Origin: Salpingoeca rosetta
Taxonomy: Eukaryota; Opisthokonta; Choanoflagellata; Craspedida; Salpingoecidae
Length of the DNA stretch: 64,000 nucleotides
NCBI RefSeq assembly: GCF_000188695.1
Contig: NW_004754921.1
Location: 201,923-265,922, forward strand
Direction of reading: 5' to 3'
Below, one piece after another: positions 32,745 to 47,105 of the stretch. The notes beneath the pieces are model-generated. The model worked only from the letters and a program-made list of their open reading frames with translations, made no database searches and was not told the origin of the DNA. The stretch's first letter is position 1. Each line of letters starts with the position of its first letter. The position numbers and the translations under genes are program-made.

Positions 32745-35700
32745 TTATGGCTCCAAGGCGACGACCGAGGTCTGATCCGTACCACCACCACCGCTCTGGC
32801 CCTCATCAGAAAACGGCACAAAACTCAGTCCGCTGCGATCAAATGAACGGGCATTCACAACATCGTCAAATGTCAAGGTCAGCATGCCAGACGTCATGTC
32901 GATGACGTAGCCTGCAACGCTTGGCCTGGTATCGTCCCCATGGTAGCCGGCAGCCATTACGCCAGCCTCGGGATCAGCCTGGTTGCCTTGCATGTCTCGC
33001 ACAAAGCCACGCTCACCAACCAGCCACGTGTTCTCCTGCGCGGTTGCAACTGCAGCGTCCAGTTTCAGCGTCCCAATAAACGCCCCAGTCAGGTCCACCC
33101 GCAACACGTGCATCTCCACGTACTCTGCTCCGGCAGTCTCGCTAGCTGCACGGTATCCGGTGTCACCGCCCGTGCTCAGCGGTGCGCCTGCAACAAACAT
33201 CTTCGTGGCATCCAGCGTTCCCGATGCAACAGGCTCCGAGAACGTCAGCTGCACCACAGCACTGTCAAGGTCAAACGTGAAGCGGAGCAGGGCTGGTGGC
33301 ACACTGTCTGCAACAAAGTCGCTGCTCACACCAAGGGCCGTGGAATGGGGCGTCCCCACAGCAGCGTTGCTGGCCGTGTCACGCACAAACCCAGCATCCG
33401 CACGCAAGTATGTCGATGCTCGTGCAGTCGCCAAGCCGCCACGCGCCTTCAGCAGGTACACGTCGGCGTCTGCAAGCGCCATCCTCAGCACCAGGGCGGT
33501 TGCGCCGTAGGATACCTTGGTTCCGTTGGTCCCCAGTCGCAACTGCGTCGCACCAGCCAGCGCGCTGTTCGCCACCCCCTGAATAACCAGCAGGCTTGCA
33601 TTCAGCGATGAGGCAAGCACGGGTTCGTCAAATGTCATCTCAAGGAGCGCCTCGTTCATGTCCAGCGCAAACCGCCGCAACACGGGGCCGGTGACATCAG
33701 CCACAAACCGAGCTGGCTGCAGGTTGCGCGTGGCATGGATGGCTTCATTGGTGTTGCCAAAACCGTCCGCAACCGCACCAGCAGCCAAGACAAGCACACT
33801 TGTCGCAGCATTCGAGGCCACACTGCGTCGGGCCTTGAGCTCGTTCAGATCATCAGCGCCCAACACCACGGCAATCTGCGTGGAAAGCAAATCAGCCGAC
33901 AACGAACTGCCAGACCAACCGTGTGCCTCGCTGTCTGGTGTCAACCGGAACCACGTCTCGTTGGACGTGGCGCGACCATCGCGGTCGACGACATCAACCG
34001 ACGCGTTCGAAAGCAGCACGACGGCACTGACATCAAATGTGTCTACCGCGACAACCTCGTCAAACGTCAGGACCAGAACCCCGTCGTCCATGTCGAGTTC
34101 AAACGCATCCAGCACGGGCCCGCTCTCGTCTGACAGGAACACCACAGGCACGAACGCCTCCGTCGCAGATATGGCATTACCGGCCGTGTCAGTCACCGCG
34201 CCGGCCGCGACCTGCACCAACGTTCTGTTCTGCGTTGCAACGAGACTCGGGCGCAGTTGCAGCGCCTGCAAATCAGCTGCCGACAGCGACAGCGACACGT
34301 GCCGACCATACCCGGCGAGGATGAAGCCCCCTTCCTGCTGCACGCCTGTGCCTGCACGCCGCAACGTCACGGCACCAGCATCCAGAGCACCAGTCGTGAT
34401 ATTGAGGAACGAGATTGCGGTCACTTGAAGCGACTGTACGTCCACCGTCTCCGAGAACTCCAGCGTCACGTTGGCATGGCCGCGCTGACTCAAGTCGACG
34501 CCGACCGCAACAACGCGCGGGGCGACGCCGTCGCGCTCAAATGCACCGCACGCAGCTGCCTCGTCGGCCGTCAGCGCACCAGCCCTCTGCGCGAACACGT
34601 CGGAGAAGGCTTCCGCGTCGTAACGCAAGAATGTGCTCTCCCGTGACACGGCGAGCGACAGGCTCGCGCGCAGACGCTCCACATCCTCAAAGGCCAGCTC
34701 GACGCGCAGCACCGGGAACGCCCACGGCTGCCCATCCGCAACTTGTGAGCCGCTGCCCAGGCGCACCGCCTCAAACCGCAATTCATTGCCGCTGACGACT
34801 CGGACTGGCCCGTTTGCTGTGGTGACGGTGGTCACGACGGGGAACGTGTTGGCTGTGGCGTTTGTAACGTTCTGCAGCACTACGCGGGACAAATCAAGAC
34901 TTGCTCCAACGACCGTCTCAGAGAACGTCAGCCACAGCTCGTTGCTCGTGAGGGACAGCGTGAAATCAACCAGCACGGGAGCAGTCGTGTCGGTGGTGAA
35001 GTTGGCACACAGCAGCGCACCCAGGGCGCTTACGCCGGAGCCTTCGCTACCACGGGCAACAGCGCGTCGACCGGCACGATCCTGCACGAGCCCCGATGCG
35101 TGTGACAGCCATGCTCGCTCACGCGAAACTGCAATGCGCTTCTGTGTGAGCACATCCACGTCCGCGCTCTCCAACGCAACGTCGATCCGGCGTGCCAGCA
35201 CGTCCGTCCCCGCCACGTGCCCACCCTGTAGGCGGTGTCCACTGCCCGCGGCGGCCGAGGACGAGTTCGGTTCAAGCACAATGGCGCTGACGTTCAGCGT
35301 GCCCACATCCACACTCTCGTTGAACACCAAGGTCAACACCCGCGAGTTCATGTTCAGGTCAAATTCAACCAGCAGCGGTTGGTTGACATCCTGCACAAAC
35401 GCACTTGCCTGCAGGGGCGCGAGCACGGGCTCCAAGGCATTGCCAGCCATGTCATCACACAAGTGTGCTGCCATCAGCAACCCGGTGTTGCTGGCGTTGG
35501 CAAACAGGCCACCCGAGGCCTTGACGGCGTCAAGGTCCCCACGCGTCATGCGCAACTCAATGCGTAGGCCGTTATCTCCACGCACGTTGCCACCACGCAA
35601 GGTCACGTTGCGCCCACCACCAGCGCCCACCAGCGTCAGCGCGGTCGCGTCAACGCTCGACACACGCACGGGCTCAGTGAACACCAGCACCAGACTTCCC

Positions 35701-44700: not shown

Positions 44701-47105
44701 GGCTCGCTGTACGACAGGCTCAGCACGCCGCTGTCCATGTTCAGCGACAGCGCGAGCAGGCGCGCGGGCAGGGCATCCTGCACAACCTGTGTTGCGTTGG
44801 CTGTGACGGGCAAGTTTGCGTTGCCGGCCGCATCGCGGATGGCACCTGCCAGCAACTGCAGGTACGTGTTGTCCACCGTCGTTCCGAGGCCAGTCCTGGC
44901 ACGCACCTCGTTTGCGGCAGCCTGGGTCAGGGTGAAGCCAAGGGTCGTGCTGTTGGCGGCTGGGGCGTCCACAGCCACCGCATCCAGCGCAACAGCCACA
45001 GTCGCGCCCGTGGCGGCGTTGACCAGGCGGGCCTGCGTCGCATCAAACGTTGCCCTGGCCACAACCTCGTCAAAGGTGAGGCGCAGCACACCAGAGGTCA
45101 TGTTGAGGGCAAAGCTCTGCAGCACAGGGCCAGTTGCGTCGGCGACATAGCTGACCGCAGCCACGGCAGAAGCAGAGGCAACCTGCCGCATGCTGTTGCC
45201 AGCAAAGTCAGCAATGCCACCTGCCGCAACAGCCAGGAACGACGTGCTGCGGCTCACAGCAAGGCCAGCGTCAGCCTTGACGCGGTTGAGCGTCGACACG
45301 CTCAGGTCAATACGCACCTGGGTGGCGTTGCCTGTGCTGCTCGCAGCATCAAGGGCGGCATCAAAAGTCACACCCTCCGCAGTCACGTTCGCGCCACGCG
45401 CGGCAACAAGGGAAAACGCACCCACAGCGATGCTGCTCGCGTTCACGTCCTCGCTGAAGCGCAGCACAACAAATCCAGCATCCATGTCAACGTCAAACGC
45501 GCTGAGCTGCGGCGGCACAAGGTCAACCGTGTACTCGCTCGGAGCCACAGCGCCGTCAACAGCGGAGACGCCAACCACGCTCGAGCCAATGGTGTCTGTC
45601 ACAAGCACAGGATCAAAGCGCAGGTACGTGGTGGCCGCGCTGCGCATCAGCACAGCAAGGCCAGCAGCATCCCGCAGCGCAAGGAAATCGCCCGTGGCAA
45701 GCTCAATCGCCACCTGGCGCTGGCTGCTGCTGGGCACAACAGCGGCTGGAGCGTGCTGCAGGCGGTAAGACTCCGCAGACGTGGCTGCTGTCGCGTTGGA
45801 CTGGAACACAAGGGCAGTGTGGTTGAGCGCGCCCACATCCACAGGCTCGGAGAACACAAGCGTCAGGACAATGGGCGGGCGGGCCTGGTCCATGCGCACG
45901 CCATAGGACACAAGCACGGGCGCAACAGCATCTGGCGCGAGCACCCGCACAGGCAGCGCAGCCACAGCGACAGAGGGCTGTCCGGCCATGTCAGCGACAA
46001 GCGCGCCGCTTGCGTCGAGGAAGGTGGCGGCGGCAGCCTGCGCAGTGTTGGCAGCAAGCTTGATGGCATCAACCACGCTCACAGAGAGCGTGATGCGCAG
46101 CTGAGTGCCATCCACAGCAGAGGCAGTGCCGTTGTCCAGCGCAGTGCGCACGGCAAAGGCAGCGTCCGTGTCGTTGGCCAGGACCAGAGCAGAAAGGTCC
46201 AGCGACGATGCAAGGACCGGCTCTGAGAACTCAAGCACAAGCTCGCCAGACGTCATGTTGAGGTCAAACGCCGTCAGCTCCGGGCTGGTCGTGTCTGGGA
46301 ACGTGAACATCGTTACGTTTGCAGCTTCATGCGCATTTTGAAACTGGTCGTCGAACGCGTTGACCACGGTCGTCAGCACGATCGTCGCGCACTGCAGAAG
46401 TTTCAGCACGTTCAAGTCTCGGGCGCTGATGGTAGCTCGTCCTTGCCTTGTTGTCACCGTGGTAACATTCGCCTTCACTGTGGTCACATACTGTGCTCGT
46501 TCCAAGCACAGGATTGATGCCCAAGTTGCAAGAAATGACGTCTCGTCCACAGTTTCGGACAAAGCGAAGAACACGTCTCCATTGGACATGTTCAGGGTTG
46601 CTGATGTTATGACTGGACCTTCGATGTCGGGAACGATGTAATCGGGTGGCTTTCCTTGTGCCAGCGTCTGCCAGTCCTCCGCCTGCAAGTCCGTCACACC
46701 AGCATTGTCTGCATTGACGAAGGTTGACTGCGTGGTGCGGCCCAACTGTTCACGCGACGCCAGCCCATCGACTGTGGCAGTGCTGAGGTTGAGATACAAG
46801 GTTGTGCCACCATCCGGCGAGCTGATGACGCCATCTGTCAGGTAGAGCTGTTCTTCGTTGGTCGTGGCGTTCGATGTCAAAAACCAGGCGTTTGCGTCGA
46901 ACGTGGAGATGTTCACCGGCTCGGAGAACACCAGTTCAACACGGTCAAGAGAGAGGTCGAGCCCGAACTGCGTCAAGGTGGGTGGCAGCGCCAGGGTGGG
47001 CACTGCAGTCAAAAGGAACGCAACGGTCAGAACGGCCAAGCAACTTGCCAATCTAGGGCGAGCGCGAGGGTGCCCTGTCATGGCGCGTGCCATGGCGTGC
47101 TGCAC
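32745..47105 (-). CDS. Giant secreted protein of ~38 Ig-like (Big_5-like) repeats; single exon with two frame breaks
   Basis: Three abutting minus-strand frames (47105-44145, 44148-42262, 42458-32745) read as one gene of about 4790 residues. The N-terminus has a basic stretch, then a hydrophobic core (CLAVLTVAFLLTAVPTLA), a likely signal peptide; in-frame Met codons at 47093 and 47081 are alternatives. The rest is ~38 diverged repeats of ~125 residues. Each opens D-T-x-x-P-x-L-V-x-F-x-L-D-M, continues with a strand L-x-L-T-F-S/D-E-P-V-x-x-x-S-L-D, then a helix-like D-x-x-x-L-K and a closing V-x-D-x-x-G-N. Asn-X-Ser/Thr sites are abundant. The opening resembles bacterial Ig-like Big_5/SbsA-type domains; this is a motif-level inference. 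Frame breaks lie near 44147-44160 (about eight codons missing) and at 42367-42369 (one extra base). No transmembrane span is seen, and the last repeat is cut short at the stop. No introns. A cell-surface or matrix adhesin is inferred. Confidence 0.85.
42361..42375 (-). other. Frame break 2 in the giant repeat gene (one extra base)
   Basis: Homology runs in one frame down to about 42370 and continues in another from 42368. Dropping one of three G (complement of CCC 42367-42369) restores a continuous repeat. It could be a sequencing error, an allele or a genuine frameshift. Confidence 0.75.
44145..44165 (-). other. Frame break 1 in the giant repeat gene (short in-repeat deletion)
   Basis: The upstream frame ends at TGA 44147-44145 just after the motif DLNAVKA. 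The downstream frame resumes with CYVTLGGGLTLDMNGN. Other repeats have about eight residues between these motifs (e.g. ...CRSPTSCYVVLG), so a short segment is missing with a change of frame. Confidence 0.7.

What the first reader, a model, noticed from the sequence alone, without database searches (positions are those of the whole stretch)
32745..47105. Giant, essentially intronless Ig-like repeat protein inside an intron-dense genome
About 14.4 kb of minus-strand sequence is open (apart from two small breaks) and encodes a signal peptide plus ~38 diverged ~125-residue repeats (D-T-x-x-P opening; T-F-S-E-P-V strand). The flanking genes carry an intron roughly every 100-150 coding bases, while this one has none. 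The repeat opening resembles bacterial Ig-like Big_5/SbsA-type domains. This suggests acquisition from bacteria or retro-type origin, followed by expansion of a surface adhesin. The repeats are highly diverged from each other, so the array is old.
Basis: partly seen in the sequence, partly recalled or inferred. Interest (0 to 1): 0.85.

Follow-up and report, generated by a model that had tools for sequence, protein, structure and literature searches.

The report
Giant uninterrupted Ig-like coat protein
A single-celled relative of animals carries a secreted-looking protein of about 4,800 residues made of 38 immunoglobulin-like beads encoded in one stretch of DNA without introns, and proteins with the same bead occur in sponges, some algae and some bacteria, so it looks like an old, overlooked kind of cell-coat protein rather than a recent import.

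Summary
The window is from the choanoflagellate Salpingoeca rosetta (100% match to PTSG_12324). In detail: minus strand 47,093-32,745 is open except for two breaks and encodes a signal-peptide-like start plus 38 repeats of about 122 residues (about 4,780 aa). The published model has 3,781 aa and lacks the N-terminal fifth. One repeat folds confidently as a Big_5-type Ig-like domain (pLDDT 93; nearest fold S-layer protein SbsC).

A recent, S. rosetta-specific import is unlikely: an unnamed 4,740-aa relative is colinear (29 of 29 reciprocal best repeats in order), seven named sponge proteins carry 33-51 of the same repeats, and GC3 is native. The repeat also occurs in two stramenopiles, Omnitrophota and an SLH-bearing protein, so the bacterial link is real at domain level; direction and date are unresolved.

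Best reading: a secreted, N-glycosylated rod of the cell coat or matrix. N-glycosylation motifs are 2.7-fold over shuffles. The two-repeat model's top Foldseek hit is the Chlamydomonas ciliary coat protein FMG1B, a chain of 34 Ig-like beads; the margin over generic Ig folds is modest and two FMG1 features are missing. Function is inferred. The breaks may be assembly errors or a damaged allele; paralogues in this genome could not be searched.

The parts
32745..47093 (-). whole giant reading frame, ATG to stop, in three frames separated by two breaks; 4,782 residues in frame
   Evidence: frame C 100% identical to PTSG_12324
46986..47093 (-). signal-peptide-like N-terminus; the most hydrophobic stretch of the protein (Kyte-Doolittle 1.88)
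   Evidence: read from the sequence and hydropathy scan; no signal-peptide predictor was run
44157..46997 (-). frame A: seven complete repeats and the first part of a broken one
   Evidence: HMM rows; missing from the published model
44150..44165 (-). break 1: frame change with about nine residues fewer than P0002
42358..44157 (-). frame B: end of the first broken repeat, four complete repeats, start of the second broken one
   Evidence: the Big_5 match above cut-off lies here
42358..42420 (-). break 2: frame change inside a repeat; the published model leaves out 28 bases here
32952..42380 (-). frame C: end of the second broken repeat and 24 repeats (one of them diverged)
32745..32945 (-). C-terminal half repeat and stop; P0002 ends at the same point (..VVALEP / ..AVALQP)

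Best explanation
The locus encodes a secreted, N-glycosylated rod protein of the cell coat or extracellular matrix. SHOWN by computation: 38 Big_5-like Ig beads; a repeat order shared with an unnamed relative; the same repeat in giant sponge proteins; D6 and D110 of the repeat nearly invariant in all eight groups examined, E30 in seven of eight, N114 in 62-100% of repeats. INFERRED: the start is a signal peptide; beads stack end to end into a semi-rigid chain; the conserved acidic residues bind calcium between beads and stiffen the rod, as in cadherins and bacterial Ig-like adhesins (recalled); glycans on the chain form a protective, adhesion-tuning layer on the flagellum, collar or rosette matrix. 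The gene was probably already a giant, intronless or nearly intronless array in the ancestor of S. rosetta and of the source of P0002.
Against: No anchor: outside the start no stretch exceeds 1.75 in a hydropathy scan and the last 60 residues stay under 1, so a surface location needs a partner or matrix. P0128, otherwise close, is depleted in sequons (13 against 45.9) and two stramenopile proteins show no excess. The FMG1B match has a low TM-score (0.31) and a wide rmsd (10.2); antibody domains follow at E 1e-4; FMG1B is not among the 50 listed for the single repeat, and sequence profiles do not list it. No expression data were available; the two breaks could mean a dead gene. Calcium binding was not tested (no coordinates at hand).
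Confidence: 0.6

Rival explanations
1. Horizontal acquisition of the array from bacteria, recent enough to explain the missing introns.
For: Omnitrophota repeats score 74-80 bits with the S. rosetta HMM, and the SLH-bearing protein P0131 with 13 repeats averages 92.8, as high as S. rosetta's own. Only 8.79% of S. rosetta genes lack introns (PMC7971027, passage).
Against: Array colinear with P0002 at a median 42% identity per repeat; S. rosetta repeats are matched best by P0002, then P0005 and P0128; native GC3; in Omnitrophota the repeat is rare (5 of 285 genomes at E 1e-8, two tandem copies at each place). The bacterial repeats lie together in both trees, as one side of a branch in the second (support 94).
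Confidence: 0.1
2. Bacteria took the repeat from a eukaryote, or both have it from before: the homogeneous bacterial copies are the younger ones.
For: Repeats within P0131 are alike (mean identity 56.5% against 29.5% within S. rosetta); the bacterial rows join one sponge repeat in the first tree (support 94, not starred); patchy in Omnitrophota.
Against: 119 columns, most forks open, midpoint root; one eukaryotic clade is not rejected (p-AU 0.776); homogeneity can also come from recent duplication; bacterial sampling is thin.
Confidence: 0.25
3. A decaying pseudogene: the two breaks have killed the gene in the sequenced strain.
For: Two frame breaks, one with about nine residues fewer than P0002.
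Against: Only two lesions in 14.3 kb. The assembly is 454 plus Sanger at 33x (PMC4054682, passages), where indel errors are plausible. The match to PTSG_12324 is not independent: its contig has the same length as the window's, 1,637,731 bases, so it neither confirms nor removes the breaks.
Confidence: 0.15

Closest known systems
FMG1B, ciliary coat glycoprotein of Chlamydomonas reinhardtii (beta chunk repeats; PDB 9gos; PMC12021028, passages)
   Same: FMG1B: about 4.5 kaa, a chain of 34 Ig-like beads of about 110 residues with one short helix each, about 22% identity between beads, N-glycosylated. Here: 38 beads of about 122 residues, one short helix in the single-repeat model, 29.5% identity, sequon excess. 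Top Foldseek hit of the two-repeat model.
   Different: No sequence similarity listed; FMG1B beads have a perfectly conserved Cys pair, while 24 of 34 S. rosetta repeats have no Cys; no C-terminal membrane domain or Cys-rich domain seen.
Pfam PF13205 Big_5 / Ig-like domain of S-layer protein SbsC
   Different: Pieces A and C do not reach the Big_5 cut-off; 38 tandem copies in a eukaryotic secreted-looking protein; 11% identity to SbsC.
Giant uncharacterised proteins of sponges (Corticium LOC134193700 and LOC134194325, Ephydatia EMCRGX_G018704 and G017626, two of Dysidea avara, Amphimedon A0A1X7V1F8)
   Same: Same repeat by HMM, 33-51 copies in 4,063-6,345 aa.
   Different: Repeat order not colinear with S. 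rosetta; one of the seven (P0087) carries TIG and Calx-beta domains.
Omnitrophota giant proteins (Ca. Velamenicoccus archaeovorus) and the SLH-bearing protein P0131
   Same: Same repeat at 74-93 bits with the S. rosetta HMM.
   Different: Only two copies inside other giant proteins, or 13 more homogeneous copies with an S-layer homology domain; no sequon excess.

Membership tests
Big_5 (PF13205) Ig-like domain | profile score above the curated cut-off | tested here: met
   25.6 bits against 23.6 on piece B; piece A 13.5, below; piece C is not listed for Big_5 and passes CopC narrowly, 23.7 against 23.3
Big_5 (PF13205) Ig-like domain | Ig-like fold as in S-layer protein SbsC | tested here: met
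FMG1 / beta chunk repeat coat proteins | giant chain of Ig-like beads with one short helix | tested here: met
   FMG1B as described in PMC12021028, passages
FMG1 / beta chunk repeat coat proteins | conserved Cys pair in every bead | tested here: not met
   8 of 34 repeats have two or more Cys, 24 have none
FMG1 / beta chunk repeat coat proteins | C-terminal disordered linker and membrane domain | tested here: not met
   the frame ends in a half repeat at 32,745, a point shared with P0002; hydropathy of the last 60 residues at most 0.95
FMG1 / beta chunk repeat coat proteins | sequence similarity of beads | tested here: inconclusive
   profiles A1 and A4 did not list FMG1B at E 1 and 10; beads of one FMG1B share only about 22% identity, so absence is weak
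CopC copper-binding proteins | copper ligands | not tested
giant repeat family shared with sponges (grouping made here) | repeats of the other group found by an S. rosetta-only profile at high score | tested here: met
   73.6-82.6 bits per repeat in 7 of 7 named sponge proteins examined, against 85-97 for S. rosetta itself
giant repeat family shared with sponges (grouping made here) | shared repeat order | tested here: not met
   2-6 in order of 5-12 reciprocal pairs, at chance; met only with P0002 (29 of 29)

The most novel reading that the evidence does not exclude
An undescribed family of giant, N-glycosylated glycocalyx proteins built from one Big_5-like bead was present in the common ancestor of choanoflagellates and sponges, has stayed intronless or nearly so over 10-19 kb in intron-rich genomes ever since, and was exchanged between eukaryotes and symbiosis-prone bacteria such as Omnitrophota; it is the choanozoan counterpart of the green-algal ciliary coat.
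Probability: 0.4. Interest if true: 0.78.

Novelty: new variant of a known kind. Interest (0 to 1): 0.6.

Why it matters
If right, one of the largest proteins of a model for animal origins has been overlooked, partly because its gene model is truncated, and sponges share it. It would give a concrete candidate for the coat or matrix that tunes adhesion in choanoflagellates and sponges, testable in S. rosetta, and a case of a 14-kb coding region that resists introns in an intron-rich genome. The repeat also ties eukaryotic coats to bacterial surface giants.

Tried and rejected
Paralogues in the S. rosetta genome: the whole-genome protein search did not complete. Only the Pfam Big_5 search of this genome was; it found a different Big_5 at C24 and not this gene, so it says nothing on paralogues. 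No further repeat was found elsewhere in the window or in 10 kb on either side, half of the right-hand 10 kb being N.

Prokaryotic relatives: patterns from the two archaeal-looking proteins gave no confirmed locus; consensus patterns gave two, both Omnitrophota. Only that phylum could then be searched genome by genome, so the spread in other bacteria is unknown. Viral contigs, plasmids and phages: none at the settings used. NCBIfam: none for two of the three pieces. PDB by sequence: nothing for frame C; for the repeat profile only CopC entries, at E 0.03 and 0.05.

Colinearity with sponges: none (2-6 in order of 5-12 reciprocal pairs), so single repeats cannot be called orthologous between the two groups. 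Repeat trees: 64 of 97 inner branches open; the direction of exchange was left open. For the second tree I dropped 12 long-branched rows, one stramenopile row that sat inside the bacterial group among them, so the tidy bacterial group of that tree is partly due to the dropping. A three-repeat alignment (A5) came out poorly because its rows overlapped; I used the two-repeat alignment A6 instead.

Literature: no paper holds PTSG_12324 in its main text; none joins 'bacterial Ig-like domain' with choanoflagellates; the other searches gave none that describes this protein, as far as titles, starts of abstracts and the passages read show. The library holds open-licence papers only, and supplements were not searched. 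Passages were read in PMC4054682, PMC7971027, PMC11573180, PMC4784904, PMC10066038 and PMC12021028.

Labels not taken from records: 'archaeal' for P0010/P0011 and 'bacterial' for P0131 (its SLH domain) and for P0188, P0189, P0191, P0201, P0203, P0204, P0206 (similarity to the named Velamenicoccus protein P0185) are my inference; so is the choanoflagellate origin of P0002 and the sponge origin of unnamed proteins such as P0003, P0004, P0006 and P0054.
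Full report
What is there. The window lies on a 1,637,731-base contig of a 54.4-Mb genome. Frame C of the long minus-strand gene is identical to PTSG_12324 of Salpingoeca rosetta, whose longest contig has the same length, so this appears to be the published assembly and the match is no independent confirmation. The reading frame runs from an ATG at 47,093 to a stop at 32,745 in three frames; the in-frame parts add up to 4,782 residues. The public model (3,781 aa) starts after break 1 and lacks about 990 N-terminal residues, the signal-peptide-like start among them.

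Repeats. A first HMM from 32 cut pieces finds 34 repeats over more than 100 of 126 positions plus one diverged, two broken and one half repeat, 38 in all. Mean length is 122 residues (SD 8.7), mean identity 29.5%. D6 (99-100%) and D110 (94-100%) are nearly invariant in all eight groups examined; E30 is kept in 91-100%, except 56% in Omnitrophota; N114 in 62-100%. Seven C-x5-8-C hairpins lie in frame in S. rosetta (nine are listed, two of them in an out-of-frame flank); hairpins also occur in P0002, P0005, P0128 and three of three sponge proteins examined, not in P0131.

Relatives. The frame C query found 11 proteins of 2,393 scored. P0002 (4,740 aa, 36%) is colinear: 29 of 36 S. rosetta repeats have a reciprocal best partner, all in order, permutation maximum 12, and it ends at the same point. 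Query P0006 gave 329 proteins, 120 listed; the seven whose names give an organism are sponges (Corticium, Ephydatia, Dysidea, Amphimedon). The S. rosetta-only HMM finds 33-51 repeats in these seven at 73.6-82.6 bits on average, against 85-97 for S. rosetta itself and 30 for the archaeal-looking proteins. Among sponge proteins some arrays are colinear, e.g. Dysidea P0059 with Amphimedon 32 of 33 and Ephydatia P0117 with Dysidea P0087 23 of 24, while most pairs are not. No order links sponges and S. rosetta, so the arrays grew or reshuffled separately, or order has been lost.

Bacteria and others. Two Omnitrophota loci were found; each has two tandem repeats inside an ORF of more than 2,690 aa, scoring 74-80 bits with the S. 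rosetta HMM and 97-101 on average (best 109) with the sponge HMM. Of 285 Omnitrophota genomes 5 have a match at E 1e-8. A query with the Velamenicoccus repeats found 95 proteins of 7,983 scored, among them Ephydatia, Velamenicoccus, Triparma retinervis, Ectocarpus fasciculatus, EukProt transcripts and the SLH-bearing P0131 with 13 repeats at 92.8 bits. In a matrix of 37 proteins or groups that I chose out of 210 proteins, S. rosetta repeats are matched best by P0002 (83.0), then P0005 (74.9), P0128 (73.3), P0163 and P0156 (72.2 each); the best named sponge protein gives 67.2. The reverse view is less tidy: the S. rosetta HMM scores P0131 (99.6) above every other protein, which says that P0131's repeats lie near the family consensus. 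Trees of 100 and 88 repeats are poorly resolved; bacterial repeats lie together, and one eukaryotic clade is not rejected. So the bacterial connection is real but undated and undirected.

Origin of the missing introns. S. rosetta genes have a median of five introns, and candidate transferred genes have as many (PMC7971027, passages), so an old intronless 14-kb frame is unusual whatever its origin. GC3 (0.66-0.74) is within the range of the 25 longest sampled ORFs (0.48-0.83). Lack of introns recurs in the family: coding sequence fills 87% of the contig of P0002 and 93-99% of those of P0012, P0023, P0028, P0044, P0062, P0071 and P0090 (lengths, arithmetic). Caution: these seven are unnamed and were picked for their short contigs; the exon structure of the named sponge genes was not seen; a database that holds many uninterrupted ORFs would miss intron-bearing relatives or show them as pieces.

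How it probably works. Secretion is inferred from the N-terminus, the most hydrophobic stretch, and from the sequon excess in S. rosetta (95 against 35.6, z 11.1), P0002, P0005 and four of four sponge proteins, absent in five of five bacterial or bacteria-like proteins; P0128 is depleted, two stramenopile proteins show no excess, and archaeal-looking P0010 has one. A chain of N-glycosylated Ig-like beads is how FMG1B builds the ciliary coat of Chlamydomonas, where its loss increases adhesion (PMC12021028, passages). I therefore favour a coat or matrix rod that spaces and tunes contacts over a simple adhesin. Calcium binding by the conserved acidic residues is a guess. Membership of the FMG1 family is not claimed: the Cys pair and the membrane domain are missing.

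Verdict.

Noticed in passing
P0001 against window:44148-47093: The published model PTSG_12324 omits about 990 N-terminal residues and leaves out 28 bases at break 2; the gene should be re-annotated.
   Followed up: yes
window:32745-32945; C-termini of P0002, P0128, P0187, P0030: Several relatives end in a half repeat at about the same point of the domain; a half bead would need a partner strand, or the exon ends there and more follows.
   Followed up: partly
Ephydatia models EMCRGX_G018689, G018692, G018693, G018699, G018700, G018704 (P0183, P0197, P0147, P0151, P0137, P0057): Six repeat-bearing gene models with neighbouring numbers on one contig: a cluster, or an even larger gene split in annotation.
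   Followed up: no
P0128: A transcript-derived relative with 35 repeats is strongly depleted in N-glycosylation motifs (13 against 45.9 in shuffles) and carries TNFR-like Cys-rich stretches just under the Pfam cut-off.
   Followed up: no
L001 (G000:C24:489335-489616): A second, different Big_5 domain in a 948-aa open frame of the S. rosetta genome.
   Followed up: no
window:3272-4990: NUP210-like stretch (below the Pfam cut-off) in a 573-aa plus-strand ORF; long exons also occur in the flanks.
   Followed up: no
P0010, P0011: Archaeal-looking 4.4-kaa proteins with 28-29 related repeats; P0010 has a 2.8-fold sequon excess.
   Followed up: partly
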